NCBI GenBank assembly: GCA_030144725.1
Contig: JASKMD010000012.1
Location: forward strand, 4,051,848 to 4,115,847
DNA from: Haematococcus lacustris
Lineage: Eukaryota > Chlorophyta > Chlorophyceae > Chlamydomonadales > Haematococcaceae
DNA: 64,000 nt
Reading direction: 5' to 3'
Under the pieces are notes generated by a model. The model was not told the DNA's origin. It did not search any database and worked only from the letters and a program-made list of their open reading frames with translations. The position numbers and the translations under genes are program-made. Positions 9,932-64,000 of this stretch are shown here, in pieces (position 1 is the stretch's first letter; every line of letters begins with the position of its first letter).

Positions 9932-10200
9932 CAGGTCAGGTCAGGTCAGGTCAGGTCAGGTCAGGTCAGGTCAGGTCAGGTCAGGTCAGGTCAGGTCAGG
10001 TCAGGTCAGGTCAGGTCAGGTCAGGTCAGGTCAGGTCAGGTCAGGTCAGGTCAGGTCAGGTCAGGTCAGGTCAGGTCAGGTCAGGTCAGGTCAGGTCAGG
10101 TCAGGTCAGGTCAGGTCAGGTCAGGTCAGGTCAGGTCAGGTCAGGTCAGGTCAGGTCAGGTCAGGTCAGGTCAGGTCAGGTCAGGTCAGGTCAGGTCAGG
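9932..10200 (+). repeat. (CAGGT)n microsatellite, about 54 units
   Basis: An almost perfect pentanucleotide array of about 270 bp. On the minus strand it reads (CTGAC)n, matching the eukaryotic branch-point consensus, and it ends at a CTGCAG acceptor bordering the F2 nuclease exon. Both strands are fully open in all frames, which creates spurious ORFs. Confidence 0.97.
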
Positions 10201-10986: not shown

Positions 10987-13900
10987 ATGGGCACTGCAGG
11001 ATGGACCGCAGAGATGCGCCAGCTTCTCGACAAGCTTCCTCCTGGGATACGGGCAGAGGTGCAACAGCTTCCCGCACATGTCGTTAAAGACCTGCTGCCG
11101 AAGCTGGTGCAAAGTGCTGAGCTGGACATCAGGCCCTTGACACACACTGATATCGAGCAGATTCACGTGAGGTGCTGCTGCTCTGGGTGTGTGCCGGGCA
11201 GCTGGGTCAACAACTGCAGTGCAGTGCAATCCTGATCTTGCACTAGTCCCCATTGTGCAGGCTCGAACTGCAGAATCCAGCCAGTTTGGCTTCTTGTCCA
11301 ATGACTTGGATCTAAGCTGGGACCAGCTGAGTGGGCCTAAGTGGGTCAAGTGGCATGGCATGCAGCATGCAGCACTGGCCTCAGGCTCGCCCTACAGAGT
11401 CAGGCGCCAGTGTCGCTTAGTAATGCTGCTGCAGCCCCCTTGTCCCTCACTAGGGCCTCCATTTGAGCCGGACCAGTAGTGGCCACTAGCAGCCACTAGC
11501 GGGAATACTAGGGACCACTAGTGGCCCGACTCAAATGGTGTTACTGGGCTGTCTGGAGTATACCCAGTGCACATGGACATGGTGCATGAGTGCCTACCAC
11601 CTACATCATTGCCTGACCCCTGAGGGCTACTGTGTAGAGTTGGCATGACAAAACATGCGCTAGTCTGCAGCCACCAGCCCAGCCATGTGCAATTGCACCA
11701 GTTACACACTCAGTAGCTACCCCAGAATACAACCTAAGTAGCTGACTCAACCTTATCCTCACTCTTATCCAAACACTGGGATCAGCCCTACTGATCCCCT
11801 ACAGAGGGTCGTACTGCCTGTCCCTCTGCTCAGGTCCCTGGCCCTGGGCGCTTTCCACAGCCGGGGCGCTACAGATGTGTGCGTGGCCTTCATTGTGGCC
11901 CATGTCGTCCCCGCACTTGAGCTTCAGGTTAGCCCTTCCCACCCTCCCGCGCCCAACCCTTCCCGCCCTCCCTCGCCCCGCCCCTCCCGCCCCTCCCGCC
12001 CCTCCCTCCCTCACCCACCCCTCCCTCCCTCCTTCCCTCCCTCGCCCCCTGCCATCCCATCCTCCCTGAGCAAAAAACAGCGCGCTTAAACCCACCCTGC
12101 TCCATGCCCAGCTCCATACCCTTGTGCCCGGCCCAACCCTGCCAAGGCCCACCTCTGCCCAGCAGCCTCTGCACCAAGTTGACTACCCAGGGGCGGCCTC
12201 CCAACCACCTTGCAACCACCTTCAACTGGGTTCTGGCCTGGACCCTGCTGCTGTCACCTCAGCCGCATCCCAGATTATCCCTGCTCATCACCCCCAGCAC
12301 CCCTCCGCTCCTGCTGCTGCATGCCCTCCATTGCTACTCTGCCTACTGCCGCCTAACACCTACCTGCTACCACCTACTGTCTACTACTACCTACTGCTGC
12401 CACCCTGCCCTCCACCACCCTGCTGATTTACCTGCGGCGTGCCTGATGTGTCATGCAACCCACAGCTAGAGCACCTTGCTCCTACACATATGACAAGGTG
12501 GGCGCAGCACCACCCTGAGTGTCTACCTGCGGCATGGTGGATGTGCCATGCAACATACAGCTATGCATACGACAAGCTGGACACAGCACCTGCGCTAGCG
12601 AGCGCAGCACCAGCACCTGTCCCTGCCTCCCTGCTGGTGGCTGTACAGGAGGCGCTGGGCGTAGCTGGGGCCCTCGAAGCCAACCCCGCAGCAGTGCCTG
12701 GTCAATCAGGAGCACTGGACACCCCACCAGCAGCAGCAGCAGCGGCTGCAGCAGCAGAGGGCGGCAGGGTGGCAGTCCAAGGTCTGGACAGGGAGGCCAT
12801 GGCTCCTTCCATGGAGGTTATCAGCAGCCAGTTGGATGACTTGCTCAGCACCCCATCATCTCTTCCTGCCCATAGCCAAGACTGGCCATGGATGGACAGC
12901 GCTAGCACCAGCACCAGCCCTGACGTGAGCTCCAATGGCAACAGCCCAAGTGCTAGCACCTCCAGCCTTGGCCTCAGCAGTGGCAACCCAGACAGCAGCA
13001 GCGGCAGCAGCAGCAGCTCCTTGACCACACACTCAGCCAGAACGAGTGATAGTCACGTGGCGACGGACAGCCAGGCAGGAGCAGTTCCACAGAGTGAGGA
13101 GAGTGAGGCGGGTGGGCAGCATGATCAGGGTGATGGTGGGCACGGCAGCCAGTCTGCCTTGCCAGCCCACATCCGTGGAGGCGGACAGAGTGACGGGTCA
13201 GACCTCACCACTGCGGCTGCTGGCCATGAAATGCTGCTCCAGGGGTTAAAGCCCATGGACCAGGTGCGGCCGCCCACACTCCCTATCTCCCCTAGTAGCT
13301 GCAGGGGTAGCTGGGCTGTGTTGAGAGCATGCACCATGCATTTTGCAGTCCCATGCCATCAGTGCTGCCAGACTGGTGTGAGGTGTGAGTTATGAGGTTC
13401 ATGCAAACCTCACCACCACTTGCGTTTTGGGCAGTCTGCTGCAGTGTATCTGATCCCCCCTGCTCCTCCTTCTTGTCAAACTCTTCTGGCGGCGCAGGAA
13501 AGATAGGCATGCCCCCTGCCTTGCTCTGCCTCGCTTGCCCTGGCTAAGCACTGGCATTGCTGCAAGACCCACCCACTGATTACCCAGGTATTGGGCTGCC
13601 AGCTGTGGCTGTCCCTCTCCACTGTGCTGCCACCCAGCCCTGGCTGCTGCCCGCTGTTCTGTTTCCTGCAGGTCATGGCTGTACCTTTCCTAGGTGTGGA
13701 CTTTGAGTTCAGGCGCCAGGGGCTGGGCAAGCAGCTCATGGACGTTGCCCGGGAAGTGGCTCAGCAGGCAAAGTAAGCATTGGAATGTGAGAGAGGTTGG
13801 GAGTGGCACCCTATCACATTTGACACAGCGTCATGGTTACACTCATGCTTGTCACACACATGCAGGTTGGACCTGCATGCTGTTGCAAGCCCTCACATGT

Positions 13901-15333: not shown

Positions 15334-18300
15334 CTATACAAGCTTGGCAGCGCGCTTGTCCGCAGGTGGCCTGAACGCATCCACCACCCCTTTCACGGTC
15401 TCAATGTAGGGCCCCTCCGCCAGCTGAATGCAGTACGGGATGGACTTGAACACCTGGGGGGACAAGCAGTGTAGACCACCTGCCAGCACTACCTCATGCA
15501 TTGGCGCAAAGACAATACCTGTAGGTCTACGAGCAGGTCGGCTAGCGGGCAGAATGAGCGCTAGCACCAGCATCACAACGGGTAGGATTGCCGGACACAA
15601 GCCAGACCGGCGTCGCTGCCACGCGGCGACAGCGGCGGCGGGCAGGTGATTGGCAGTCGCGGTGTGTCGCGGGGCTGCCGCGGCTTACCCCCGGGGGCAC
15701 CTACCTCGTCAAATGTCTCGCGTATCGACTTCGGCTTGCCCGGCAGGTTGATGACGAGCGCCTTGCCGCGGATGCCGGCTGTTTGGCGCGACAAGACGGC
15801 CGTGGGCACGTAACGCAGGCTAATGGCGCGCATCTGCTCCCCGTACCTGTGCGTATCGACGAAGAAGCTGGTGTCGGCGACGGGACAGTGGTGGCTAAAC
15901 AGGCTGACAGGCTGGGCAGGCCGGGCAGGTGCCATGGCGGCCTATGGGTGGAGTGCGCTCGACCTGGAAGTCCGTGTCCTTCCTGGCGGTGCATGTGCTT
16001 CGCCACATACAGGCGGATGCCATGTAGTGATACCGGATTTGATGATGATGACGAGGATGATGATGAGGATGTGATGATGATGACGAGGATGATGATGAGG
16101 ATGACGAGGATGATATGTGTGATCAGCCATGGAGGTGCCCATCAAAGCATCCTTGTCAGCATGAAGACTAAACCCCTCCAATGCAGCAGCACAGCTGCCA
16201 TCAGGGTTTTCCGCTGAAGCAGCAGCGGCATGCAACACGACACGCACAGTGCGGCTGCAACACTCCCAGCAGCAACACATCATGGGCAGTGGTGCCAGGC
16301 CCTACTATTGACCCAGCAGCCAAATGTGTCCCCACACGAGCAGCACGCAGTGTGTATGTTGTGTGCTGTGGCCAACGCAAAGGTGTCCCAATCCAGTCTG
16401 GGGCAAGGGGTACCCGGAACATGCGCACGAGAAACATATCACTGCATGCTCCCCATGTGCCTGCCACCCACAACACAACAGACCTGCGGGGCAGCATATG
16501 ACCGCAGCAGTCGTTCACAAGGGACACCCGCCTACCTGCGCTTGCGCGTAAATGCTACCACTGTTCATGACAGCTCCCTGATGCAGGCCTAGGCAATGCC
16601 AGGGCCCAGGCTGTGCCCTGCTGCTCCGTGTTGTTACAAGGCTGGTCAAGCGTGCGTCGTTCTTTGCACGTGACAATGGTTGCTTTACATGCTGGTAGGA
16701 AGATAACACGTGATGTGGCGGGGCTGACGTGATGTGGCGGGGTAATGAATCACACATAGTCTTTTACAAAGCGACAATCACACGACAGCTCATATAGCGT
16801 TATGGCTAAGAAGAAGCAGAAGGGCAGCGGCAAGGAGAAGAAGGGTCCGCCAAAGAAACCGAAAGGTTCGCGTCCCTAGCCGACTGTGAGTTACGCGCTG
16901 TGTAATAACCCGTCGCTCCTGTTTGCAGCGTCTCGTTCCCCTCAAGGGAAACAACGACAGGAGCGCCGGGATGGCTGGGACACGCACAGACGTCAGGTGA
17001 CAGGCCACGCCCGTCTTGTGTGTCCTGGCAATGTTTGTGTTCCCACATCTTGTCTTGGCCTCTCAAAGTGGCCTGTCAAAATGTCATTTGTGCTTGTCCG
17101 CGGGTTATCAAGGTCCCGGAGGGCGCTGTGCTGCGCGGGTGCAAGAAGACAAGGCGCAAGCTACGGGAGCACCTCCGGCTGCGGGCTGAGGTGCATTCCC
17201 AGCTCCGCGTCATCGCGTCGCTTTTTGTTCTGCGGATCTTACCCCACCCCGGGCTTCCCCAGAGCCACTCAGCCTCCAGCCGTGCAGCCCCCCCAAGCAC
17301 CAGATGCACCCCCCTTATCCCCACTACCCCCTCGTGCCCCTGCCCAGCCTGCCCCTGCCCAGCCTGCCCCAGCCCAGCCTGCCAGCATGGAGTGGGACTG
17401 TGACTCTGACTCCGAGTCGGACTGTGACTCTGAGCCAGAGCCACAGTCTGACTCGGAGTCAGAGTCAGAGCCTGAGCCAGTCACGCAACCCCCCCAATGC
17501 GCTGCAGCGCCCGTCTGGCAGCCCTTGCACCAGCAGCACCCACTGGCCCTCCTTTGCCCCTTGACTGCGATGCCCCTTGACTGTGAGTGATGCTGAGGCA
17601 GCTCAAGGAATTCAGCAAGTTCTATGCCAACCCCAACTTCCTCACAGTCTACAACCAGCTGCAGCGGCGCCTTGTGCGCCCAAGACAGCGCCGCCACCCC
17701 ATGCTCATGCCCGTCTTTGAGGACCCCAGTAACCAGGCGCTGCTGGCCAAGCTGCAGGAGCTGGGCAACATCGATCTGAAGGGTGACACCAACACCATCG
17801 GAGCGCACTCAATGCAGCTGACGGTGGCCATGCAGCAGCACTACTCCGGGCTGCACATTGTGTTGCACAAGGGTTGCAGCAAGGAGCTGCTTTGTTTCAA
17901 CAAGGAGCTGCAGATTGCTGGGGTAGCGTGCTAGTCAATCAGGCCAATCAATCCTTGTTAAGGGGTTGTGTGGAGTATACCCAGTGCACATGGACATTCC
18001 TTGCCTGGCAGGCTGAGAGGCGTAACTTGCATGTAAAGTAGCACCTTGGACCATGGTGGGATAATCATCACTCCATGAATCTCTCGGGAAACTCAAGGTG
18101 CTAGAAAAGGCCACCTCCCGGCTCAATGCATATTGCGTGATGGCTAAGAAGAAACGGAAGGGCAGCGACAAGCACAAGAAGGGCTCGTCAAAGAAACTGA
18201 AAGGTTCGTGTCCCTAGCCGACTGTAAGTTACGCGCTGTGTGATAGCCCGTCGCTCCTGTTGGTTCCATTGCAGCGTCTCGTTCCCCTCAAGGCAAGCAA

Positions 18301-19603
18301 GGACAGGAGTGTCGGGATGGCTGGAACACGCGCACACGTCAGGTGAAAGGCCGCGCCCGCCTTGTGTGTCCCCGCACTGTTTGTGTCCCCGCATCGTGTC
18401 TTGGCCTCTCAAAGTGGCCTGTCAAACTGCTGATTGTGCTTGGCTGGAGGTCATCAAGGTCCCGGAGGGCGCCGTGCTGCGCGGCTGCAAGAAGACAAGG
18501 CGCAAGCTACGGGAGCACCTCCGGCTGCACCATTGCGTCGCTGTTTGTGTTGCGCATTTTCCTGACCTTCCTTGTGGGCTACCCCACCATTGAGCTGTCA
18601 TCAGCTTACATTAGCGTATGTTTTGTCATGGCAACTCTACACAATAGCCCTCAGGGGTCAGACAATAGTGTAGGTGGTAGGCGCACATGTACCATGTGCA
18701 CTGGGTTACTCCACACAGCTCAATTACACCACTTGAGTCGGGCGACTATTACCCACTAGTGGTGCCTAGTATTTCCGCTAGTGGCCACTAGTGGGCCCTG
18801 GTGGTCCGGCTTGAATGGAGGCCCTAGTGAGGGACAAGGGGGCTGTGCCCTGCTGCTGCTCTATGAGACTGAGACCCATGCTAGGAAACACCCACTCACC
18901 CACCCAGCCACCCTTTAGCTACCAACCTGAAAACCTTGCCATTCCACCCCAGCCCCAGGCCCCAGGCCCCACCTACCCTGGCATCATCCTGTCACACACT
19001 GCTTGAGTTGCCTCAGGTGTGACATCCCTTGGTGCTGGACCAGTACCACCAGTGGTGACCACCAAGCAGCAACCCTTATGGTCCACCTGCAGCAGCCAAA
19101 ACCACTAGTCACACGAGCCACATAACGGGCAAAATGAGCCAGGTGGCGACACACACTATGTAATGCCAGCATCCCAAAGTGTCTCATAATGCACCTGTTG
19201 TTACATATGATGTGTTTCAGCCAGGGATGTTTATCAACACAGAGCATGCTCTATTGCAGGCTAAGCTTGCCTCCTATGAGTCACGGCAGTGCCACCTCTG
19301 AACCTGGCCTACCAGGTCAATGATGGCTTGCTCAATCAGGGGCTGCTCATCTGGTACTAGCTGGTATTCTGCCCGCCACGGTGATGCGATGGCATCGTGG
19401 AAGAACTGCACGATAGCAGGCCCGCTGAGGTCCTCGTACACACCGGTGCTGGCGCGGTCACTAACTGTCAACACTCCAAGTACGGCTGAATCGCCAATGC
19501 TTTCAGGGCTTCCGCCTTGTAAAGGTAGCATCCGCCGATTCCTGACGGCCCTCCCTGAAGTTGGACACCCTGCCGCACCATCATTAACGGCCAAAACCAC
19601 CAT
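15334..19603 (-). CDS. CNX1G: Molybdopterin adenylyltransferase (MogA / CNX1 G-domain)
   Basis: Four exons join in phase on the minus strand: 19603-19304, 19086-18977, 15846-15705, 15453-15334, about 223 aa. It adenylylates molybdopterin before molybdate insertion in Moco synthesis. Visible family motifs: [40 protein letters not shown] with the TTGGTG nucleotide-binding loop, [37 protein letters not shown], and [16 protein letters not shown]. The layout follows bacterial MogA and the stand-alone CNX1G known from Chlamydomonas. Intron 2 is about 3.1 kb and packed with repeats. The ATG at 19603 leaves only 80 bp to the divergent SNF7 start. An internal Met at about residue 25 is an alternative start. 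Confidence 0.88.
16036..16112 (+). repeat. (GATGAY)n-type microsatellite in CNX1G intron 2
   Basis: Irregular GATGATGAC/GAGGAT units. The acidic translation (DDDEDDDED) is a by-product of the repeat. Confidence 0.85.
16628..16690 (+). repeat. 62-bp dispersed repeat, copy 2
   Basis: Same sequence and orientation as 5926-5987. Here it sits about 110 bp upstream of the Lys-rich gene fragment at 16802, inside CNX1G intron 2. Confidence 0.7.
16802..17262 (+). pseudogene. Lys-rich gene fragment, tandem copy 1
   Basis: It starts [20 protein letters not shown]; an in-frame TAG follows at 16877-16879 unless spliced. A downstream segment after a TTTGCAG acceptor reads [17 protein letters not shown] and a further one [20 protein letters not shown], then a hydrophobic start ASLFVLRI. 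The same ordered segments recur at 18139-18592, which argues for a duplicated gene rather than chance. I cannot name the family. It lies inside CNX1G intron 2 on the opposite strand. Confidence 0.4.
17280..18078 (+). mobile_element. Unclassified element (X), copy 1
   Basis: It contains a Pro-rich then Asp/Ser/Glu-repeat frame ([14 protein letters not shown], 17390-17480) and an ORF at 17590-17934 ([20 protein letters not shown]..., 114 codons, no family recognised). The end of this ORF and following ~90 bp (17867-17960), plus 18005-18078, recur at 23963-24053 and 24240-24311. A ~30-bp piece of the F1 3' block (17968-17998) lies between them. Confidence 0.45.
18139..18592 (+). pseudogene. Lys-rich gene fragment, tandem copy 2
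   Basis: A second copy of the 16802 segment: [20 protein letters not shown], an in-frame TAG, then [15 protein letters not shown] and [20 protein letters not shown] segments. Relative to copy 1 it lacks about 30 bp after REHLRL, and its hydrophobic run is longer ([18 protein letters not shown]). It is cut by the F1 copy b boundary near 18592. Confidence 0.4.
18592..18845 (+). mobile_element. F1 element 3'-end copy b (intron of CNX1G)
   Basis: The conserved 3' block of F1 in sense + orientation, with the 3' terminus at 18845. The stem arms are diverged but still pair: several changes convert Watson-Crick pairs to G-U in the sense strand. It is antisense to CNX1G. Confidence 0.85.
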
Positions 19604-19683
19604 GGCTTCCTGGTGCCTGCCTCGTGGGCTACGTATACGACGCTTCCGTGCACTAGTGCCGACCTTCGCAGCGAACAGCGGTC
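19604..19683. promoter_or_regulatory. 80-bp bidirectional CNX1G/SNF7 promoter
   Basis: The likely ATGs of CNX1G (minus, 19603) and SNF7 copy A (plus, 19684) are only 80 bp apart, so both promoters and 5' UTRs must share or overlap in this interval and the neighbouring coding sequence. About 100 bp including most of this interval is retained upstream of SNF7 copy B (from ~22880). No TATA box stands out. Confidence 0.55.
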
Positions 19684-20561
19684 ATGTTTAAGAAGCTTTT
19701 CGGTGCCAAAGACTCTCAGCCCCCCTCGCAGCCCAGCTCCTCATCAGCGAACAAGACTATCAACACTATTCAGCAGCTGACTGAGCATGAGGAGCTGCTG
19801 GAACGCAAGAAAATCCTGCTCGAAAAGCGGGCAGAGGCAGAACTCCAGAGGGCTCGCGAGTTCACGCAGCAAAAGAAGAAGCCGCAAGCTCTGCAGGTGT
19901 GCGAGCCTGGGAGAGACATCCATCAGAAAACCCTCGTGATGCTCAGGAGCAGATGTTGATCATCATTGGCTCAGCGGAAGGGCGTAGAGCTACATTTGGC
20001 ACATGTGTGTGACTGCGAGCCTTACTGGGCGTTGCCCATGTCGCACTGCTGTTGCCTGTGCAGTGTCTCAAAAAGAAGAAGCTGATTGAGAATGAGATAG
20101 CCAACATGGACAACATGATCATGCGTGTCATTGAGCAGCGCAGCATGCTGGAGAATCAGCGCACCACTGTGGAGGTGGTCAGCACCATGCACCAGGGCAC
20201 ACAGGCCATGAAGGACAACATGAAGGCCATGAAGATTGACAAGGTGGACAAGGTCCTGGATGAAATCAACGAGACAGCTGACCAGATGCGCCAAATCAAT
20301 GACGTGTTTGCCAACCCCATTGGTTCCGCCGTGGACCTGGATGAGGATGAGCTCAATGCTGAGCTGGCTGAGCTTGAGGAGACACAGCTGGACACTGAGC
20401 TGCTGCAGCCAGCGCCAGTGCCCACCACTCGGGTACCAGCAGCAGCAGCATCGACAGCGGCTACTGCAAAGATGCCCACGGTGCCAGCACGCAAGGCAGC
20501 GCCAGCGAAGACACAGGAAGAGTTGGAGCTGGAGCAGTTGCAGGCAGAAATGGCATTGTAA
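19684..20561 (+). CDS. SNF7: SNF7/VPS32 (CHMP4-type) ESCRT-III subunit, copy A
   Basis: Two exons, 19684-19896 and 20064-20561, joined in phase 0, give 236 aa, normal for the family. ESCRT-III SNF7 polymerises on endosomal and other membranes to drive budding and scission. Visible: MFKKLFGAKDS start, the basic helix 1 hairpin region (EHEELLERKKILLEKRAEAE), KKKLIENEIANMDN and MDNMIMRVIEQR in helices 2-3, DEINETADQMRQINDVF, and the acidic C-terminal region ending ELEQLQAEMAL. The start is fixed by conservation with copy B. The intron is 167 bp. Near-identical to the gene at 22987. Confidence 0.93.
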
Positions 20562-20825
20562 GGTCATGGTCCTGTCAAGGTGCTGCACCAGGAATGTGAG
20601 TGAGCAGCGCGCCCATGTGCTGATACTGATTAGGGCCCCGGAGCTCAGCTATGGCAGATGCTAGGGCATCAGGCCGCGGGGTCCAGTGCCTCAGGTCACC
20701 AGCACGGAGCTGCTCCTACTGGTGAGGCAACAAGTTAAAACACGACTGATAGCCAGGTTTTGCTGCCAATTGGGAAGGAAGTTAGCTAGGCGCTGATGTA
20801 TGCTGCAAGCAGAAATGGCATGTTC

Positions 20826-20977: not shown

Positions 20978-22986
20978 GATGTATGCTGCGCAGTGTGGGA
21001 ATGAGCTGCCATGGGGTGTGGCAGTGAGGAGGAGTTGCATGCCAGGGTAATCCCCCCTGCAGCTGATCACCCACAGCTGGCGGGCAGTGGCAGGCTATGT
21101 CCCTGCATGGCGTGGTGTGTGGGATGCACGGTAACTAGTGCATTAGCGGGGAAGCAGTGCAGGGTGGCTTGGGATATGTCATGTCAGTAGGTTTTGAGGC
21201 TGGCTTGTTTGCTGCAACTTGCCACGATCGAGTGAAGGTTTCAGTCCTGGATGCATATATGGCTTGATCTGTGTAATGCACCCAGCTAAACATCTACACC
21301 AGATCAGCTAAGCTAAGCACCCTAAACAGACACCCCTGCGGTATTGAAGGCCTAGCTTCAGGAGTCCCCAACATGGGGTTGGTAATCTTCATGCAAGTAC
21401 TCGCTACAGAGTGCACCGATTTCGATAGCGTTTGTTGCATTGGCACCTGCGAATTACTCCGCATCTGCTGGCAAGCGGCGCGTTAATCCTTGCATCAGAG
21501 TCCATGCCGGCGCAAGCGAGCGCGGACACACCTCAGCTGCTCACTATCGATTGTTCTGGTGGTGAGTAGCGGCACCAATGAGCGAACTGCGCTTGGCATC
21601 GAGCCGGAAGTACAATCACATTACAGCCCGCCAGGCTTGCTCCGCGAGCCTTTTGTTGATGCAGACGGTGTTGCAGGGCCATCGCTTGGCATGTGATGTA
21701 TCGACATTGCGGCAAAAGCGGGAAATGTGCGTCTCTCTCGCCAGTCACACAGGAAAAGGGACCCTCACCCTCTATTTGGCATGTTGTGAGCTGACCACTG
21801 TGACTTTACAGACTTTCGATACATAACTCTGTTCCTTACTCAACGTCACAACTGCAGGAAAAGAAAGCATGGCAGTTAGTTGATCAGGCCTGCTCAAAAT
21901 GACTTTGGCGTGACCCGACTCTGCCTTGCAGGAATGACTAGCCCATCCGACCCTGCCCCTTGCAGGCCCCCCCCCTCCCGAGCCCAGCATAGCCTTCCTA
22001 CCTCCTCTCACCCACTCCCAACCCCAGCCCCGCCCTCCACCCCCCCTCCCACCTCCTCCCAGCCCCCCCCCTGCCCTCCCACCCCAGCTATTCCCTCCCA
22101 ACCCCAGCCCCGCCCTCCCACCCCCTTCCCACCCCCTCCCAGCCCCCCCCTGCCCTCCCACCCCAGCTACCCCCTTCCAATCCCAGCCCCCCCCTCCACC
22201 CACCTCCCCCTCCCTCCTTGTCCCGGACCTAGCAACTCCAGCCCACCCCAATGGGGCGCAGCCTGCAGCGTGCTCACCTTCAAGCCCTGAATAGTTCACC
22301 AAGAGCTGGTTATCTGCACTGCCCTAACGGCCTAAAAGCCACAGCAAGGAGGGCTAAGGACATTGCTCAAGAGGTGCAGGCCGAGAATGAGTTGTTGACG
22401 ACCGAGGCCAAGTTGCAACAGGCTTTCAGGGAGGTCCTTGAGGCTGCCTTACTCGACGTCAGTCGCGGCGGTCGATCGCGGCGAGGCCCGCATGAGCATT
22501 ACAAGCATAATTTAAAACGTAAAGATTTGAGCCGCCATAGCACTCAGCACAGTGCACAGTATTTAATTATACATGTTGCACCGCATAGCTGACGGAGTCC
22601 TCTATCCAGTGATGTGCGAAACAAAAATAGAAACCACGTGGCTGAGACGCGGCGTCGTTTTGATTACCAGGGGTCGGTTTCCTGTCATTTTATGTTAGTT
22701 GGGGACACCTGACCTAGCTGCATTGAGACCACAACTTGGCTTGTACAGCACCCAGTACCCTTGCATGCCGGGTGGAAGTAAGCTGTTTGCCACCCGTTAG
22801 ATGTCATGTACTGGTAATGACAGCGATCATCGTTGGGGTCCAGGCCCGCCTCCAACCACTTCGCCACCACCAGGTGTCATCAACCGCCATAACCATCACG
22901 GCTTCCTGGCGCCTGCCTCGTGGGCTCCCTGTCGCACACAATCCGCCGTAGCACGCCAGCGCAACGCGCTGCGAGAACAAGCTGTC
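20978..22986. other. Spacer between the two SNF7 genes
   Basis: No gene is supported. A TGTAA motif at 21272 could serve SNF7 copy A. At 21940-22240 there is a C-rich minisatellite (separate entry). A + frame at ~22320-22480 (ATARRAK..., QQAFREVLEAALLDVS) is protein-like but unassigned. From ~22880 the sequence matches the CNX1G/SNF7 intergenic region, including the first codons of CNX1G on the minus strand, so the duplication that made SNF7 copy B began there. Confidence 0.45.
21940..22240 (+). repeat. C-rich minisatellite
   Basis: Irregular units built from CCCTCCCA, CCCCAGCC and CCCGCCCTCC motifs, strongly strand-asymmetric (C on +, G on -). It yields Pro-rich frames that I do not regard as coding. 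G-quadruplex potential on the minus strand. Confidence 0.8.
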
Positions 22987-23867: not shown

Positions 23868-23962
23868 GGCAGACCTCATCTCATAGCACTAGGAACGCAC
23901 AACTTTAGTGCACTTGCGCTGTAGAGCATGTCTGGTCATTGTGTCAATGCATTGTTTGAGGA

Positions 23963-24311
23963 GGGTTGCAGCAAGGAGCTGCATTGTTTCAACAAGGAGC
24001 TGCAGATTGCTGAGGTAGCCTAACAGTCAATCAGGCCAGTCAATCCTTGTTAAATGAGTTTTGTTTGTCTGAGGAGGGTTGCAGGGTGTGGGTGGTCGTC
24101 ATATATTAAGTGTGGGTGGTTGTTGCGGGTGGGGCTCGTATGGCAACATGGCTGGCCATGCTGCTGGCTAGCTGTGCTTACAATTGGCTAATCATTATTG
24201 ACAACTGGCTACCTTATCCTTAGCAGCCTTGTCTTGCCGGGCAGGCTGAGAGGCGTAACTTGCATGTAAGATAGCACCTTGGACCTTGGTGGGATAATCA
24301 TCACTCCATGA
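23963..24311 (+). mobile_element. Unclassified element X, copy 2 (tail only)
   Basis: 23963-24053 matches 17867-17960 and 24240-24311 matches 18005-18078, both in the same order. The interior (24054-24239) is longer here and includes GTGGGTGG-type repeats. It abuts F1 copy d. Confidence 0.6.
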
Positions 24312-24317
24312 AACTCA

Positions 24318-24772
24318 GGGACTGCAATGGAGCGCTGAACATGCAGCGCATTGGGGAGAGCAGGTGGCGTCCACTGGAGCTGTGCTTCTAGCCAGACCAG
24401 GGAGCTCTGCCAGCCGAGGGCAAGGAGTACCCTGGCCTGGGCTACAAGCGGCTGCGAGACAAGCCACCCAAGGCCCAGGAGCAGCAGCCTGCTGTGGCAC
24501 AGTAGTATGTGTCGCCATTTGAGCTTTCATCAGCTTACATTAGTGCATGCAGGTCATGCCAACTCTACACAATAGCCCTCGTGGTCAGGCAATAGTGTAG
24601 GTGGTAGGCGCTCATGTGCCATGTGCACTGGGTTACTCCACACAACCCAATAACACCATTTGAGTCGGGCGACTATTGCCCACTAGTGGTCCCTAGTATA
24701 TCCGCTAGTAGCCACTGGTGGGCCCTGGTGGTCCGGCTCAAATGGAGGCCCTAGTGGGGGACAAGGGGGCTG
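24318..24772 (+). mobile_element. F1 element copy d with nuclease C-terminus, broken
   Basis: It starts inside the RuvC-III motif (RDCNGALNMQRIGESRW, lacking the first Asp-Arg context), continues through RPLELCF and hits an in-frame TAG at ~24389 where Tyr-Trp is expected. The remaining frame KEYPGLGYKRLRDKPPKAQ runs to the normal stop at 24503-24505. The 3' block then runs to the terminus at 24772. Confidence 0.85.
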
Positions 24773-26603: not shown

Positions 26604-27165
26604 CAGCCCCCTTGTCCCTCACTAGGGCCTCCATTTGAGCCGGACCAGTAGTGGCCACTAGCAGCCACGAGCGGGAATACTAGGGACCAGTAGTGGCCTG
26701 ACTCAAATGGTGTTAATGGGCTGTGTGGAGTATGCCCAATGCACATGGAAATGGTGCATGAGTGCCTACCACCTACATCATTGCCTGACCCCTGGAGGCT
26801 GTCGTGTAGAGTTGGCATGAGACACATGCACTGATTGTAAGCTGATGGCAGCTCAACAAAGGGGGGCACACACTACTGTGCCACGGCAGGCTGTTGCTGC
26901 TGCTGCTGCTGGGCCTTGGGTGGATTGTCTCGCACCCGCTTGTATCCATGCTCAGGGTACTCCTTTCCCTTGGCTGGCAGCTTCCCCTGCTCTGGCCAGT
27001 AGCACAGCTCCAGTGGACGCCACCTGCTCACCTGTCCAGCAACCTGCCTGTGGTGCTGGCTTGGCTTTGGCAGCCTTGGTGGGCTGGGTTGGCTCAGCTA
27101 CCTGCTCAGCCTTGGTGCGCTTGCTGAGCTTGGCTGGAGGGGGAGTGCTGGGAGCTGTTGACTGT
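26604..27165 (-). mobile_element. F1 element copy e with RuvC-III deletion
   Basis: The 3' terminus is at 26604, the block runs to ~26840, and the nuclease C-terminus follows on the minus strand with stop TAG at 26873-26875. Compared with the copy at 30 kb, about 40 bp are missing between the codons for GRWL and RWRPLEL, exactly removing the DRDCNAALNMQRIGES motif. The upstream Lys/Pro-rich linker is retained to ~27165, where the copy ends. Confidence 0.85.
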
Positions 27166-30035: not shown

Positions 30036-31440
30036 CAGCCCCCTTGTCCCTCACTTGTGCCTCCATTTGAGCCGGACCAGTAGTGGCCACCAGCAGCCAC
30101 TAGCGTGAATACACTAGTGGGCAATAGTGGCCCGACTCAAATGGTGTTATTGAGTTGTGTGGAGTAACCCAGTGCACATGGCACATGAGCGCCTACCACC
30201 TACATTATTGCCTGACCACGAGGGCTATTGTGTAGAGTTGGCATGATAATACATGCACTAATGTAAGCTGATGAAAGCTCAACAAAGGGGGGCATACATC
30301 ACTGTGCCACAGCAGGCTGCTGCTGCTGCTGCTGCTCCTGGGCCTTGGGTGGCTTGTCTTGCACCCGATTGTAGCCTAGGCCAGGGTACTCCTTGCCCTT
30401 GGCTGGCAGAGCTGCCTGGTCTTTCCAGTAGCACAGCTCTAGTGGACGCCACCTGCTCTCCCCAATGCGCTGCATGTTCAGCGCTGCATTGCAGTCCCTG
30501 TCCAGCCACCTGCCTGGCTGTGGTGCTGGCTTGGCTTTGGCAGCCTTGCCTTGGGCCTTGCCTTTGCCCTTGGTGGGCTGGGTGGGCTCAGCTGCCTGCT
30601 CAGCCTCAATGCGCTTGCTGCACTTGGCTGATGGGGAAGTGCTGGGCCCAGGGTCTGAGACTGCTGCCGGTGTTGCTGCCTGGCTGCTGCGTGGGGCCTG
30701 TGGGGGCTTGCGGGGGGCCCCTACTGGGCACCACATCAGGCCCCGCACTGGCTGGGCACGCTGCTGGCTCCAGGCTGGGCGCACCAGGCGGGCTTCCACC
30801 TGCCCTGCTGGAGGCTTCCTGCCTGCAGGCCTGGTGGCACTGAGTTTGTTCAGCTCCTCCTCACATGGCTGCTTCCCATTCACTGCTGAGCTGACCCGGG
30901 TGGTGCGGTGCTCATCCACAAGCACCACCCTGCCCCGCAGCTGGCCTGCGCCCCTGGGCCTGCACACCACCTTGCAGCAAGCACGCAGCACCGCATCAGC
31001 ACCCCACCCTCCCGTTGTGCCAATGCCAGCTGCGCCAAAGAACACCACCACCTGCTTGGCACAATTGTGGCGCTTCATGGACAACTCAGCCATGTCCTTC
31101 TCCAACTGCAGTCATGCACACAAGGCACACACATGGTGACTGACATGGTGGCACCAGGTTAGGCATGGCACAGTCAAATACTCTTTCATGTCATGCACTA
31201 CCCACCACCTCCCAGTCCCTGACCCCCCCTCCCCTCCATCCACCCTCACCTTTTTGAAGAACTGCTCCAGCGCCCGGTCCTGGGCTCTGTACAGCCTCAG
31301 CCGCTGCCGTGTCCACTTGGGGTCCAGGTACACCTCCCACACCGCATTCCAGGTGGCCAGGGTGACAGTGATGTGCTTCAGGTTGGCCTCCAGGGAGGTG
31401 CCGGCTGAGCTTGCTGGACTCTTCAGCCCTGCGTCATTGG
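30036..31440 (-). mobile_element. F1 element copy f, longest copy in the window
   Basis: The 3' terminus is at 30036. The conserved non-coding block runs to ~30298 and the nuclease C-terminal half from 30299 up to about 31440, where homology to the family (AGTSLEANLKHITV) begins. The N-terminal half with RuvC-I is missing, so this copy is 5'-truncated. Confidence 0.85.
30299..31440 (-). CDS. Fanzor-like RuvC nuclease, C-terminal half (F1)
   Basis: Two exons splice in phase 0: upstream ~31440-31250 (HITVTLATWNAVWEVYLDPK, RQRLRLYRAQDRALEQFFKK) and 31105-30299 (268 codons). The second contains KQVVVFFGAAGIGTTGGWG, VVLVDEHRTTRVSSAVNG and VRGLMWCP, a long Ser/Pro/Lys linker, then RuvC-III GRWLDRDCNAALNMQRIGES and a conserved RPLELCYW tail. 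D-R-D-x-N-A-A-x-N is the TnpB/Fanzor RuvC-III signature, and VDE-x-R-T matches the segment before the zinc region. The zinc-finger cysteines are mostly absent. No stop interrupts this half. It could be a remnant translated only if fused to an N-terminal half. Confidence 0.7.
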
Positions 31441-37215: not shown

Positions 37216-37710
37216 CAGCCCACTTGTCCCTCACTAGGGCCTCCATTTGAGCCGGACCAGTAGTGGACACTAGCAGCCACTAGCGGGAGTATACTAGTGG
37301 GCAATAGTAGCCCGACTTAAATGGTGTTAATGGGCTGTGTGGAGTATACCCAGTGCACATGGACATGGTGCATGAGTGCCTACCACCTACATCATTGCCT
37401 GACCCCTGAGGGCTATTGTGTAGAGTTGGCCTAAGAAACATGTACTAATGTAAGCTGATGACAACTCAACAAAGGGGGGCACACACTACTGTGCCACGGC
37501 AGGCTGTTGCTGCTGCTGCTGCTCCGGCCAGTAGCACAGCTCCAGCGGGCGCCACCTGCTCTCCCCAATGCGCTGCATGTTCAGTGTCGCGATGTAGTGT
37601 CTGTTCAGCCACCTGCCTGATTGTGGTGCTGGCTTGGCATTGGCAGCCTTGGTGGGCTGGGTAGGCTCAGGTGCCTTCTCAGCCTTGGTGCGCTTGCTGC
37701 GCTTGGCTGG
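37216..37710 (-). mobile_element. F1 element copy g, catalytic motif mutated
   Basis: The 3' terminus is at 37216, the nuclease stop at 37486-37488, and homology ends ~37710. The RuvC-III region reads GRWLNRHYIATLNMQRIGES: both catalytic-site aspartates and the Asn are replaced. About 80 bp between CYWPEQ and the final Gln run are deleted. A dead nuclease with an intact 3' block. Confidence 0.85.
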
Positions 37711-49343: not shown

Positions 49344-49383
49344 CAGCCCCCTTGTCTCTCATTAGGGCCTCCATGTGAGCCCA
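49344..49383 (-). mobile_element. F1 element copy h, 40-bp 3' stub
   Basis: Only the last ~40 bp of the F1 3' end are present (CAGCCCCCTTGTCTCTCATT...). The most severely 5'-truncated copy in the window. Confidence 0.7.
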
Positions 49384-50858
49384 ACTCCAGGTCACAGTCC
49401 AAGCCAGCCCACCTCCAGTCCACCGTTCAAGCAATCCGGACTTCAAGGGAGCAAGCCAAGCAAGCCCATGCAACTACAAGGCAAGAAGCCTAGGACGAGC
49501 AGTAAGGTGGTGGTACGCTGCACCTGAACCAACAGGTTCCCAAGTAGTCCAAGGAGTATGCCACGTCTCCATGCTGTTCCTGATGCATGGTGTATGGTGC
49601 TATGCATGTGTTCCTAAGATGCCTCACCCCGTTCCCCCCTGACATATGGGATGCTTTGCTTCTGGCCATTGCTTGATGGTTCAATCAACTTCGCACGCTG
49701 TGACTGATCATCCGCCGTTTTACCCTGCTTACCTACTTGTTGCACCTTATCCACTGGCTAGCAGCCACCATCTGAGAGCTGTGTTCCTGGATGCACAAGC
49801 ACACAACAACTGGCAAACCCTGGTAGACTGCCCCCCTGTTGTACCTGCTTCGGGTGAAACTCCCACCACCTGGCATATTGCCACTACATCCTGACAACCC
49901 GCAGAGTGAGCGTGAAGGGCTCACGTACTCACCCGCTTCTGGCACTCTGCTGGCCACACACCTTGGCGTTGCGCTCATAGCACGACTACCCAGCCTCCCA
50001 AATAACAGCAAGCTGCATGGCGCACATGGGCAGCTTGGCGAGATCAATGCTGGCTACTTGTGTTGTGTGCAGCACAAGGCTCAGTGTGACCCTGCTGGCT
50101 GGCTGGTTCTAATTCAGCAGCCAGTCCAGGTCCAGGTCCACGTCATGGACCCAGGCCAGACAACCCCTGGCATGGAGATCAGGAACGGACACAGGTCCTG
50201 TTTTATCAACACCTGCCTTATCTGCTACAGGAATGCTGCTGCCCCAGGCCTACCCTGCTCTTGCTATGCAACTCTTGCCATGCAGTCGACGGTGGTCCTG
50301 TATGCCTGGTGGGTGAATGGAAGCAGGTGGCAGCTGTCTCGGACTGCTCTTCCTAAAAGCCCTTGTGACAGAGCAGCTGCTGTCACCCTCCTTGAGTGTA
50401 TTGAAGCGCAGTGGCGTGTCAATGTCAGTGCATGCTACCATGCCCGGTCTTGTTATTCATTCCATGGAAGCCTAGGGCCCCATGCATGCTGTTAAAGTGC
50501 CAGCCATGCTTTGTCTGGACTGCCACACGCAAGTGGTCAACTGAGACCCGGGCCCTGATGTTCCCGGGTCGCTCGCTGGGACAGGGAGGGTCAGGCTGGT
50601 GGGGCGGGGAGGGATGGAAAGCTGAGGCTGGGTGTGTAGCCAAACGCACGCTCCACTTGCAGCACACTGTGGCGCAAGTCAATGGTATTGTAATTGATGT
50701 AGCGAGCGAACCTGCAGGCACATAAGTACCATGCAGGATGAGGGTAACAATGGGGAACATCTCATTCAGCATCGTATGACCTTTCATGTCAGCAAGGGTC
50801 AAACAGCTGGTGGGATCAGGTAGCACACACAGCTGACTATCAAGCGCAGTGCCTACCC
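49384..50858. other. No confident gene
   Basis: A + frame at ~49839-50495 is long (218 codons) but lacks an ATG start, a recognisable domain or splice support. A sequence at 50375-50408 (GCAGCTGCTGTCACCCTCCT...) resembles 61286-61320 in the EF-hand gene's first intron. CCAGGTCCAGGTCCA-type repeats occur near 50125. Confidence 0.35.
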
Positions 50859-53447: not shown

Positions 53448-53930
53448 CAACCCCCTTGTCCCTCACTAGGGCCTCCATTTGGGCCGGACCAGTAGTGGCC
53501 ACTAGCAGCCACTTGCGGGAATATACTAGTGGGCAATAGTAGCCCGACTTAAATGGTGTTATTGGGCTGTGTGGAGTATACCCAGTGCACATGGACATGG
53601 TGCATGAGTGCCTACCACCTACATCATTGCCTGACCACGAGGGCTATTGTGTAGAGTTGGCATGAAAAACATGCACTGGTTGTAAGCTGATGACAGCTCA
53701 ACAAGGGGGGCACACACTCAGTACTGTGCCACAACAGGCTGCTGCTCCTGGGCCTTGGGTGGCTTGTCTCGCAGCCGTTTGTACTCCAGGCCAGGGTAAA
53801 CCTCCTTGCCCTTGGCTGGCAGAGCTCCCTGGCCTTTCCAGTAGCACAGCTCCAGTGGACGCCACCTGCTCTCCCCAGTGCGCTGCATGTTCCGTGCCGC
53901 GTTGCAGTCCCTGTCCAGCCACCTGCCTGG
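53448..53930 (-). mobile_element. F1 element copy i, 3' part (split by LTR element)
   Basis: The 3' terminus is at ~53448, the block to ~53717, and a nuclease tail with stop TGA at 53718-53720 (a base change replaces the usual TAG, adding one residue). RuvC-III is intact: GRWLDRDCNAARNMQRTGES. Split by the LTR retrotransposon; the rest continues at 60575. Confidence 0.85.
53926..53930. repeat. 5-bp target-site duplication (left)
   Basis: CCTGG directly precedes the left LTR and is repeated at 60575-60579 after the right LTR. Confidence 0.9.
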
Positions 53931-54124
53931 TGTAGCATGTCCATGCGGTCATGCAAATCTGGATCTGAGATCTCCTCATGCAAGTGTAAGATCTGAACTG
54001 GTGGTGGTGTTCTGAGGCTGGGTTCAACTCCCAGGCAGACTTGACATCGTTGACATCCTTGACTACGCCCTAGTCTGCTCAGGCGACCTCTTAACACTAT
54101 TGACCGCTGTAGCCTCACGCTACA
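53931..54124 (+). repeat. Left LTR, 194 bp
   Basis: It begins TGTAGC and ends GCTACA, a perfect 6-bp terminal inverted repeat. It includes TGTAA at 53985-53989 (green-algal polyadenylation motif) and a hairpin at 54018-54034 resembling a tRNA T-arm. Confidence 0.96.
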
Positions 54125-60944: not shown

Positions 60945-63076
60945 ATGGGTTTGTTCAACTGGTTCTTCGCGAAGGCGTGTCGCATTGTCTTCGACCGAGT
61001 CGACCACAACAGGGACGGCCATTTGGAGGTAAATCACCTGTTCATCGCGCTTCATTCCCGAAACCGGCAGGCGGCACAAACCCGGCTGCCCGCCCCATGC
61101 TCCAGAGCCGTCATGCTGGCCAGAGCTTGGGGCAGTAACTTGCAGAGGACACACCAGATGGTAGTGGACATACCAGATAGCAGAGCTGGCACCACACTCC
61201 TGGCTAAGAGTAGCAGAAGGCTTGAAGAGTCCAATCACATGCCAACAATTTTCTTATATTTTCCCAATATTCCCAATATACAGTGCAGCTGCTGTAACCC
61301 TCCTCGAGGGTGTTGAAGCCCTGGAATCAGAGCAGCTATTGTCACCCTGTTAGGGCCATTGTGATGGAAAGGGTTTAGGGCAGTGGCTCGTGTGTGAGGT
61401 AAAGCTGAAGCGGTGCGCTAAGTGGGCGTTGCCGGGTAGGCTGGTCTTGATTACGGCTCATGCCGCGCTTTGGAAGTTGAGCCCTTGGCTGGTAGATCAG
61501 GGCCAGATCAGCGCACAACCCCCTCTAGGTCAACAGTTGGGTCACTGTGCACAGGGTGTGCGAGGGGCACACTCACGGTCAGGAGCACACTCATGCCCTG
61601 CGCTCCACGCTGCTCATTGCCTTGGCACCTGGGAGGCTACACCCTCCCCCACACCCTGCTACATGCCCTGCTTTAAGCTCCTGTTCGCCTTGACGCCCAG
61701 GAGGTGTTAGCTGTAGGGGTTGCCAGCAACCACCAGGTGCTGCCCACCCACCAGCAACCACCTGCCAGCAACCACCCACCAGCGACCACCCGTCAGCAAC
61801 CACCAGGTGCTGGCATCACACCTGTCCTCTCACACCCCCTCTGCCTGTCCCTTGCAGCCCTTGGAGGTCGAGATTGCGGTGCTGGAGCTTTACAATATCT
61901 TCAACAAACGACTGCCTGGCTGGGTGGATCCACCCAGAAGGGCGGAGATCCAGGCAGCGCTGCGCAAGTATGATCTGAGTGAGCGCTGGAAGGGCAGCAG
62001 CAGGGAGATCAGCAGCAGGAAGAGCGGTAGCAGTGGCGGAGGCAGCGGTGGTGGCGGCGACAGCGACAGCGGCGGCGGCAGATTCATCAAGCAGCACAGC
62101 AGTTAGTGCCTCAAGGCAGCCCGCTTGTCCCTCACTAGGGCATCCATTTGAGCTGGACCAGTAGTGGCCACTAGCAGTCACTAGCGGGAATACTAGTGGG
62201 CAATAGTAGCCCGACTCAAATGGTGTTACTGGGCTATGTGGAGTATGCACAATGCACATGGACATGGTGCATGAGTGCCTACTACCTATATCATTGCCTG
62301 ACCCCTGGAGGCTATTGTGTAGAGTTGCTGAGCACGGGAAGGTTTGGCCATGCAGCAAACGCTCACAGGCATAGCAGAGTAAGCAATGGGCAGCTGCCCT
62401 GCTCGCACCCTCATTGGCGTACACTGCCCATGCTGCCGCTGCCGCCACTGCCACCTGCAGCAACTGCCTCTTGTTGACATGGCTAGCTGTTCACCCATGC
62501 TGCTGCTGCTGCTGCTGCTACCGCCACTGCCGCTGCATATAGATGGTAACGGTGCACTGGAGCCGCGAGAGTTTCAAGAGTTTGCAAAGACAATCATTCG
62601 ACATGGTCCAATGATGGTGTTGGGGCGGTTTGGTAAGTGCCCATGTCCCCCACTCCCAGTCTTCCTCCCTCACCCTCAAGCCTTGGCCTCTGCCCCTCAT
62701 TCACCTCGCCCAAGTACGGGTCAAGGCAAAAAGAAAGGCTGAGTCTAATGCCGGTCATTCTTTCACGTCGTGATGACCTTGAGATTCGCAACGGTGATGT
62801 TGTTGATGGGATGAGGTGTGACGGCTGTGTGATGTGCGGGTCAACAGGTGCCCCCAGCCATTTTTCTTTCTCAGCCCCTCCCAAATTCTTCTCCCAGCCC
62901 CTGCTCTTGCCGATGCCCCGGCAGGTGGCAAGGCAGCGCTGACCACAGCCATACTGCCCGCCCTGGGCTTTGCGCTGCACACCTCGCTGCCACTCACCAA
63001 GCGTATCCCTCTAGCCGTGCTCGCGCCGGTGCTAGGCAACCTGGCGGGTGTGGCTCGCATGCTGTTTAGGCTGTGA
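60945..63076 (+). CDS. EF-hand calcium-binding protein with C-terminal hydrophobic region
   Basis: Four exons in phase: 60945-61028, 61858-61978, 62543-62632, 62925-63076; 148 aa. EF loop 1, DHNRDGHLE..., crosses the exon 1-2 junction; EF loop 2, DLNGNGALEPRE, crosses the exon 2-3 junction and has full ligands at positions 1, 3, 5 and 12. The C-terminal ~50 residues are hydrophobic (LTTAILPALGFALHTSLPL, IPLAVLAPVLGNLAG), so it may be membrane-anchored. The N-terminus MGLFNWFFAKACR is amphipathic; Gly2 is present but not a clear myristoylation consensus. A TGTAA motif lies at 63800. Specific function unknown. Confidence 0.82.
62117..62326 (-). mobile_element. F1 element 3'-end copy j (intron of EF-hand gene)
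   Basis: Only the 3' block, terminus at 62117, ending at ~62326 before nuclease codons. It lies in intron 2 of the EF-hand gene, antisense to it. Hairpin arms retained. Confidence 0.85.
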
Positions 63077-63918: not shown

Positions 63919-64000
63919 CAGCTCCCTTGTCCCTCACTAGGGCCTCCATTTGTGCCGGACTACGAGGGACCACTAGTGGCTACTAGCGGCAATACTAGGG
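63919..64000 (-). mobile_element. F1 element 3'-end copy k, runs off the window
   Basis: The 3' terminus is at ~63919 (CAGCTCCCTTGTCCCTCACT). Homology continues to the window edge with one deletion in the loop region. Confidence 0.75.

What the first reader, a model, noticed from the sequence alone, without database searches (positions are those of the whole stretch)
11432..11670. Conserved F1 3' block with an 80-nt hairpin: candidate guide-RNA scaffold
Every F1 copy carries the same non-coding sequence after the nuclease stop. In copy a, arms 11459-11482 and 11515-11538 form a 24-bp stem with 21 Watson-Crick pairs; in the nuclease-sense strand two of the three others are G-U wobbles. Copy b (18.7 kb) keeps the stem through further G-U substitutions. 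Two more short stems (ACTGGG/CCCAGT, TGCAC/GTGCA) follow on the nuclease side. Position and structure fit TnpB/Fanzor omega-RNAs, which lie at the 3' end of the nuclease gene with the guide taken from flanking DNA.
Basis: partly seen in the sequence, partly recalled or inferred. Interest (0 to 1): 0.88.

Follow-up and report, generated by a model that had tools for sequence, protein, structure and literature searches.

The report
Structured right end of algal Fanzor transposons
In a green alga, a very abundant family of jumping genes that carries a gene resembling an RNA-guided nuclease (Fanzor) ends in a folded segment whose fold has been kept by evolution; it is the end at which copies join host DNA and may also be the nuclease's guide-RNA scaffold, but the big hairpin that drew attention is an optional part of it.

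Summary
The hairpin is real and non-random (sense-strand RNA z = -4.9). The host is inferred to be Haematococcus lacustris (contig lengths). The block is the sharp 3' (right) end of a 3'-anchored, 5'-truncated element encoding a Fanzor1-like nuclease.

Across 82 copies the helices are kept: 73 of 142 single changes preserve pairing, about 39 expected; WC-to-GU changes outnumber WC-to-AC 62 to 28, so the nuclease-sense strand is constrained.

New: insertions follow GCTG. 12 of 67 copies show a target-duplication-like repeat of score >=10 (control 3 of 652), 11 of 12 preceded by GCTG. The element itself ends in GCTG: this suits a strand-nicking, one-ended mechanism (as Chlamydomonas CRe-1,2,3), and would make a flank-derived guide cut its own junction if GCTG were the TAM.

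Verdict: structured transposon right end, plausibly also omega-RNA; RNA unproven.

The parts
11432..11662 (-). Copy a of the 3' (right-end) block of the Fanzor element; sharp outer terminus at 11432, 5' truncation at about 11662
11459..11538 (-). 80-nt hairpin (arms 11459-11482 / 11515-11538): variable arm present in one class of tails
   Evidence: pair changes; absent from the other tail class
11546..11551 (-). 5' half of the closing helix (CAGCCC in sense), 7 nt upstream of the hairpin
   Evidence: consensus fold; at least 5 of 6 pairs possible in 82 of 82 selected copies; not chosen
11432..11437 (-). Terminal GGGCTG (sense): 3' half of the closing helix, element terminus, contains the same GCTG as the target motif
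11444..11455 (-). Small hairpin CCCT-AGTG-AGGG (sense), ending 12 nt before the terminus
   Evidence: helix 5: 98.1% of cells paired
16628..18845 (+). Copy b: whole insertion with two partial N-terminal exon sets (ATG at 16802 and 18140) joined to the 3' block
   Evidence: 14-nt direct repeats (1 mismatch) 16614-16627 / 18846-18859, both after GGCTG; similar N-terminal exons in annotated protein P0197
20807..20978 (+). 172-nt 5'-truncated copy of the block
   Evidence: 11-bp repeats 20796-20806 / 20979-20989 after GCTG
24180..24772 (+). Internally deleted copy (5' region joined to C-terminal coding piece and block)
   Evidence: 13-bp repeats 24167-24179 / 24773-24785 after GCTG; 5' region shared with copy b
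49344..49408 (-). Very short copy; about 38 nt match the terminus, the rest is unaligned
   Evidence: 7-bp repeat after CTG
30036..31416 (-). Longest nuclease-bearing window copy: block plus C-terminal nuclease frame 30302-31111
   Evidence: protein relatives
26604..27157 (-). 5'-truncated copy, block plus nuclease C-terminal remnant
37216..37710 (-). 5'-truncated copy, block plus nuclease C-terminal remnant
53448..53931 (-). 5'-truncated copy, block plus nuclease C-terminal remnant
62117..62327 (-). Truncated copy of the block
63919..64000 (-). Copy of the block cut by the window end

Best explanation
The block is the right (3') end of a DNA-level, 3'-anchored ('one-ended') mobile element of Haematococcus lacustris that encodes a Fanzor1-like nuclease. 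SHOWN: a sharp terminus, mostly ending GCTG; ragged 5' ends; in a subset of copies, insertion directly after GCTG with short target duplications; a GT..AG interval kept inside the nuclease gene of genomic copies; pairing of the nuclease-sense strand kept beyond expectation in an outer hairpin stem, a small hairpin 12 nt from the end and a closing helix between CAGCCC and the terminal GGGCTG. INFERRED: the sense strand at this end is recognised as a folded single strand. Most likely it has two uses: as single-stranded DNA it presents the terminal GCTG to a strand-nicking transposase acting in trans (Helitron2-like, the group proposed for the Chlamydomonas Fanzor elements CRe-1,2,3), and as the 3' end of the nuclease transcript it supplies an omega-RNA scaffold to which the first flanking bases are appended. 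The 80-nt hairpin is a dispensable arm, not the core.
For: Terminus: 37 of 42 hairpin-type copies end CTG; 34 of 39 rows end GGTGCTG, the other 5 being copies with another or a cut tail. Truncation: 5' ends from 37 to about 1,670 nt (hairpin type) and from about 1,600 nt to the limit of the DNA held, about 2,500 nt (other tail), from the terminus. Target: 12 of 67 copies have a direct repeat of score >=10 (length minus 4 per mismatch) starting exactly at the terminus, control 3 of 652 swapped pairs; 11 of 12 preceded by GCTG, CTG background 3.4% (p about 7e-16); one more by eye, L066, 13 bp after CTG. Pairing: covariation score 0.156, 0 of 500 shuffles as high; 2 pairs with compensatory double changes (GC to UA; CG to UA), 31 cells. 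Tree count: 73 of 142 single changes keep the pair, about 39 expected from unpaired columns; WC to GU 62, WC to AC 28 (p 0.0002), while unpaired C-to-T 130 and G-to-A 114 at tips are near-symmetric. Nuclease: DPG, VDEHRTT and DRDCNAALN in one frame; homologous to a second H. lacustris family with the same motifs (E 9e-41). DNA-level: GT..AG interval of 108-180 nt in 38 of 38 loci that hold both flanks. Precedent: PMC3627910 sections 8 and 9 read.
Against: No RNA data, so the omega-RNA half is untested. G-T pairs are also tolerated in single-stranded DNA (recalled), so the sense-strand bias does not separate RNA from ssDNA. If GCTG is the TAM, the element's own right junction (GCTG plus flank) would be a target of its own guide; in Spu-1 a conserved CA lies upstream of the left end, which I read as the left-end TAM arrangement. 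The closing helix is not in the RNAalifold consensus of 33 copies, not in the RNA fold of copy a, and in only 2 of 6 single folds; and the 82 copies were picked by likeness to strings that hold both its arms, so 82 of 82 is partly selection. Its two internal-branch changes both broke the pair. No Helitron Rep/helicase partner was found because that search did not complete; the target differs from the TTTT of CRe elements. 'Pair kept' proportions do not differ significantly between internal and tip branches (15/23 against 62/123, Fisher p 0.26). RNAalifold on the first 33 copies found no both-side change. 55 of 67 copies show no repeat of score >=10, and 2 of the 3 control repeats also follow CTG. 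The GT..AG interval is a multiple of 3 in 38 of 38 loci, so it may be partly coding.
Confidence: 0.55

Rival explanations
1. The block is only a single-stranded DNA signal for the transposase (nick site plus hairpins) and has no guide-RNA role; any Fanzor guide RNA lies upstream or is lost.
For: The terminus shares GCTG with the target, and an upstream CAGCCC can pair with the terminal GGGCTG, as expected of a nick site presented on folded DNA (the likeness to IS200/IS605 guide and cleavage sequences is recalled, from no call). The self-targeting problem disappears. The nuclease zinc-finger cysteines are replaced (SSAV).
Against: The WC-to-GU excess on the nuclease-sense strand fits RNA at least as well. 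PMC10432273 reports omega-RNA expression for 20 Fanzor loci from ten organisms (section 7 read).
Confidence: 0.3
2. The 80-nt hairpin itself is the essential Fanzor guide-RNA scaffold.
For: Position at the 3' end of the nuclease, strong fold, sense-strand wobble bias.
Against: About 40 of 88 long-frame nuclease copies carry another tail without it; it ranges from about 55 to about 90 nt and its interior turns over.
Confidence: 0.1
3. The copies are retrotransposed: a LINE reverse transcriptase recognises the 3' hairpin and primes at GCTG, as in SINE/LINE pairs that share a tail hairpin (recalled).
For: 5' truncation, exact 3' end, short target duplications and 3'-end/target microhomology all match target-primed reverse transcription.
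Against: The GT..AG interval stays in 38 of 38 loci and N-terminal GT..AG intervals with in-frame stops stay in the window copies; no poly-A or tandem-repeat tail at the terminus. Weakened by the interval always being a multiple of 3; odds raised from 0.12 to 0.15 for that.
Confidence: 0.15
4. The hairpin is a by-product of the palindromic repeat (C)CACTAGTGG multiplying in the tail, without selection on the fold.
For: The interior consists of repeats of CTAGTGG(C), which self-pair in any number.
Against: The outer stem and small hairpin are not made of that repeat and show compensatory and wobble changes.
Confidence: 0.1

Closest known systems
Fanzor1 elements CRe-1, CRe-2, CRe-3 of Chlamydomonas reinhardtii (Bao and Jurka 2013, PMC3627910; Helitron2 group)
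   Same: Fanzor1 gene with introns, intact 3' ends, frequent 5' truncation and internal deletion, TSDs of variable length directly after a fixed short motif, hairpin near the 3' end (sections 8 and 9 read).
   Different: Motif GCTG, not TTTT or T-rich; the terminal bases equal the target motif; apparently a larger family; at least two unlike tails behind one nuclease; Helitron partner and 5'-end structure not shown.
SpuFz1, GtFz1 and PpFz1 omega-RNAs (PMC10432273, PMC11423790)
   Same: Structured RNA-coding region between the Fanzor gene and the right end, extended into flanking DNA; variable stem-loops between SL1 and the guide (section 7 read; passages).
   Different: RNA proven there, not here; ends and TAMs differ; no 7-bp SL1 identified here; the right end here repeats the target motif.
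IS200/IS605 right ends with TnpB reRNA (recalled; right-end RNA mentioned in PMC10711439 passages)
   Same: Right-end hairpin serving transposition beside a TnpB-family gene and its RNA.
   Different: Eukaryotic host, no TnpA looked for or found, target duplications present.

Membership tests
Fanzor1 nuclease | DPG motif at RuvC-I (PMC10711439, passages) | tested here: met
   GVGIDPGVTQ in the L029 frame and in most of the 32 proteins of A3
Fanzor1 nuclease | Relocated RuvC-II glutamate six residues before the zinc finger | tested here: met
   VDEHRTTRV followed by SSAV in place of CxxC; the spacing of the glutamate is met
Fanzor1 nuclease | C-terminal zinc finger (worded as present in many TnpBs and Fanzors) | tested here: not met
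   CxxC replaced by SSAV; as the source says 'many', it was not treated as excluding
Fanzor1 nuclease | RuvC-III aspartate motif (DRDxNAALN; wording partly recalled) | tested here: met
   DRDCNAALN
Fanzor1 nuclease | Profile match to the TnpB/Cas12f TNB family | tested here: inconclusive
   PF07282 above its cut-off of 26.3 bits in P0015 (32.5) and P0146 (27.6), below it in the other matches; 14 of 32 members of A3 at E <= 0.1; genome scan with PF07282: 0 matches, 6 candidates scored; no useful PDB match; AlphaFold model too poor to use (pLDDT 34.8)
Fanzor omega-RNA | Discrete RNA from the right end with a flank-derived guide, bound by the nuclease | not testable with these tools
   needs small-RNA sequencing and pulldown
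Fanzor omega-RNA | Structured sense-strand region up to the right end | tested here: met
Fanzor omega-RNA | Same scaffold behind every copy of the nuclease | tested here: not met
   for the 80-nt hairpin: two tail classes
Helitron2 / CRe one-ended element | 3'-anchored copies with TSDs after a fixed motif | tested here: met
   TSDs found in a minority of copies
Helitron2 / CRe one-ended element | Insertion after TTTT or a T-rich tetranucleotide | tested here: not met
   GCTG instead
Helitron2 / CRe one-ended element | 5' hairpin with asymmetric terminal inverted repeats | not tested
   5' end not delimited
Helitron2 / CRe one-ended element | Rep-helicase partner sharing the 3' end | not tested
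   PF14214 search did not complete

The most novel reading that the evidence does not exclude
A Fanzor1 omega-RNA whose terminal bases are at once scaffold end, strand-nicking site and target motif: after each insertion the nuclease complex recognises its own right junction and every empty site alike, so cleavage at the junction would drive one-ended copying, with 3' tails being exchanged between nuclease lineages as modules.
Probability: 0.12. Interest if true: 0.8.

Novelty: new variant of a known kind. Interest (0 to 1): 0.5.

Why it matters
If the block is transcribed and bound, H. lacustris holds a very large natural set of Fanzor right ends, each with its own flank, in one genome: a ready data set for reading out a target motif (GCTG), scaffold-tail exchange, and the link between an RNA-guided nuclease and one-ended transposition. 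That link has been proposed for Fanzor-bearing Helitrons (PMC3627910; PMC10432273 discussion passage) but not settled. If it is not transcribed, the block is a clean case of a folded transposon end whose last bases equal its target motif.

Tried and rejected
Rfam scan of the window: no family at gathering score. PF07282 over the genome: 0 matches. PDB sequence search with P0001, the L029 frame and profile A3: nothing meaningful. AlphaFold on A3: mean pLDDT 34.8, not used. NCBIfam on 4 proteins: weak TnpB matches in P0015 only. An inverted 42-nt piece of the block at 17956-17997, which might have been a 5' terminal inverted repeat, is not seen upstream of the other 5' regions read and was dropped. 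First direct-repeat scan (9 of 67 with >=7 bp, control 1.9%) was superseded; both used 67 copies after removing 14 of 81 with a repeated flank. One search found 96 tails; 13 were dropped for a repeated flank (among them the window copy at 26604) and the false hit at window 17307 by eye, leaving the 82 rows of A2. Literature: the listings show no paper on Fanzor in Haematococcus; the only listed paper holding both words is on Auxenochlorella, and the passages seen of its preprint version name other green algae. Subscription journals are mostly not held.
Full report
WHERE IT IS. The window is G000:C22:4051848-4115847 of a 307.9-Mb assembly. C22 is 12,546,000 bases long, the same length as a contig that carries Haematococcus lacustris QJQ45 proteins, and C1 and C64 have the lengths of Chr1 and Chr17 in PMC10400597 (passages).

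THE OBSERVATION. The 24-bp stem with 21 Watson-Crick pairs is there; two of the three others are G-U on the minus strand and one is C-C. The 150-nt end is more stable than 200 of 200 shuffles as sense RNA. The window holds 10 copies of 82 nt or more, one cut by the window end, and one match of about 40 nt.

ANATOMY. The copies line up at one end. 37 of 42 end exactly in CTG, typically ...GACAAGGGGGCTG, and the DNA beyond differs except where loci are duplicates. The other end is ragged: 37, 38, 191, 211, 231 up to about 1,670 nt from the terminus. Copy a is such a truncated piece and has no nuclease sequence. Longer copies continue into a frame with VDEHRTTRVSSAV and DRDCNAALN on the same strand. 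A protein search gave 1,300 relatives at E <= 0.01, of which 120 are listed, all H. lacustris. A genome search with P0120 had 32,628 first-look candidates; 88 were scored and the table shows 88 C-terminal matches. First-look numbers are not counts of copies.

THE NUCLEASE. L029 reads 723 residues without a stop, including a GT..AG interval of 156 nt that most of the 32 annotated proteins in A3 lack (P0122 reads it through, P0181 and P0199 keep parts). It has DPG (RuvC-I), a glutamate in the Fanzor position (fingerprints from PMC10711439 passages) and the RuvC-III motif. The zinc-finger CxxC reads SSAV. Profile support is thin: PF07282 passes its cut-off only in P0015 and P0146 among the proteins scanned, there is no useful PDB match and the AlphaFold model is poor. 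It is clearly homologous to a second H. lacustris family with the same motifs (29% over 560 columns, E 9e-41). I file it as Fanzor1-like on motifs and architecture.

TWO KINDS OF TAIL. The 88 copies were all read at the 3' end (L029-L096, L109-L128; open frames of 445 to 1,453 residues, some with a stop inside). By hand tally, duplicates not removed, about 45 have an F1-like tail with a hairpin (L060, L072, L076, L093 rearranged), about 40 have another tail (L063 and L110 cut short, L078 altered at the end) and 3 neither (L071, L092, L117). The two share roughly 120-140 nt after the stop and GGGNACTCCACACAG further on; then they part. The second kind ends ...CTCAAGGTTGAGAGCCAAGGTGCTG (34 of 39 rows end GGTGCTG; the other 5 rows have the first kind of tail or a cut one). 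Both have a possible small hairpin ending 12-13 nt before a terminal GCTG. So the 80-nt hairpin is not needed by the nuclease as such. Within hairpin tails the stem comes in versions: TTTGAGTCGGGCC/GGTCCGGCTCAAA, TTTGAGTCGGGTC/GATCCGGCTCAAA, TTTGAGCCGGATC/GATCCGGCTCAAA and TTTTAGCCGGA/TCCGGCTAAAA.

IS THE FOLD SELECTED? Alignment A2: 82 copies, 27 pairs in closing helix, outer stem and small hairpin. The copies were picked by likeness to two tail strings. 96.1% of cells pair; covariation score 0.156 against 0.138 +- 0.003 in shuffles (0 of 500); two pairs have both-side changes in 31 cells; sliding the partners destroys it. Two shuffle measures go the other way (pairs with a both-side change 2 against 3.9; pair types 26 against 28.9). 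In the first 33 copies RNAalifold found no both-side change; the signal appeared only with the more diverse tails. Shuffling ignores relatedness, so I counted changes on a FastTree tree built from the other columns: at tips 60 of 121 single changes kept the pair, 32.6 expected from the spectrum of unpaired columns; on internal branches 13 of 21, 6.3 expected. WC-to-GU 62, WC-to-AC 28. Unpaired sites show near-equal C-to-T and G-to-A (130, 114 at tips), so the asymmetry is not mutation bias. Internal and tip branches do not differ significantly. Expected values are approximate: one tree, Fitch counting.

THE CLOSING HELIX. CAGCCC, 7 nt upstream of the hairpin, can pair with the terminal GGGCTG; all six pairs are possible in 56 and five in 26 of the 82 copies, and its tip changes are 18 kept of 25, 6.2 expected, but its two internal-branch changes both broke it. 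It is in the fold of the majority sequence, in the plus-strand DNA fold of copy a and in 2 of 6 folds; it is not in the RNA fold of copy a or the consensus fold. I regard it as likely, not established.

HOW IT INSERTS. Comparing flanks, 12 of 67 distinct copies have a direct repeat of score >= 10 that starts exactly at the terminus; swapped flanks gave 3 of 652. In 11 of 12 the upstream repeat follows GCTG; CTG occurs at 3.4% of positions; 2 of the 3 control repeats also follow CTG. Three of the 12 are in the window (16614/18846, 20796/20979, 24167/24773). The repeats run from 7 bp to 15 bp. L066, left out of that count because its flank repeats that of L060, shows 13 bp after CTG in a near full-length copy. 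L014 shows by eye about 22 bp with a small indel, its own terminus reading CAG. The element's last bases equal the target motif. The GT..AG interval inside the gene is kept in 38 of 38 loci with both flanks, 108-180 nt long; it is always a multiple of 3, so it could be an intron that is also readable, which weakens but does not remove the argument for DNA-level transposition. N-terminal GT..AG intervals, after an in-frame stop in the first exon's frame, are kept in two window copies (about 16.88-16.93 and 18.22-18.27 kb).

INTERPRETATION. PMC3627910 (sections 8 and 9 read) describes the same behaviour for Chlamydomonas Fanzor1 elements placed in Helitron2: intact 3' ends, 5' truncation, TSDs of about 7-19 bp after TTTT or T-rich tetranucleotides, hairpin near the 3' end. 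The present family is best seen as a relative in mode of life with target GCTG. PMC10432273 (section 7 read) shows that Fanzor right ends give omega-RNAs running 14-15 nt into the flank in Spizellomyces, and PMC11423790 (passages) says the part between SL1 and the guide is variable; a dispensable 80-nt arm fits that. But if GCTG is the TAM, the inserted element offers GCTG plus its full guide match at its own right junction. So either the TAM is something else, or this end acts chiefly as nick site, or self-cutting is part of the mechanism. The data do not decide.

VERDICT. On re-checking I raised the retrotransposition rival from 0.12 to 0.15 because of the multiple-of-3 interval, and left the other odds.

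Noticed in passing
L029-L128 (3' ends): The same nuclease coding sequence is followed by at least two quite different 3' tails, as if right ends were exchanged between element lineages.
   Followed up: partly
L029-L068, interval between the two large coding blocks: A GT..AG interval of 108-180 nt is a multiple of 3 long in 38 of 38 loci, so it may be an intron that can also be read through.
   Followed up: partly
P0129, P0131, P0256 and relatives: Both large H. lacustris Fanzor-like families read SSA where the zinc-finger CxxC is expected.
   Followed up: partly
P0256, P0293, P0251: A second Fanzor-like family (about 750-900 aa, DRDVSAALNIRRC) exists in the same species; its 3' ends were not read.
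   Followed up: no
P0125, P0128, P0180, P0258 and others: Several public H. lacustris gene models join Fanzor pieces to unrelated domains (for example PF00481, PF00416), so the annotation is probably contaminated by these elements.
   Followed up: no
window 19581-20563 and 22877-23869: A gene region duplicated at 92% identity, with a Fanzor element copy downstream of each; the protein looks Snf7/CHMP4-like (recalled, not searched).
   Followed up: no
window 9932-10200: Long array of a short GGTCA-type repeat beside stretches at 9.25-9.76 kb that match the nuclease region of the 30-kb copy.
   Followed up: no
window 17956-17997: Inverted 42-nt piece of the block inside copy b, of unknown origin.
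   Followed up: partly
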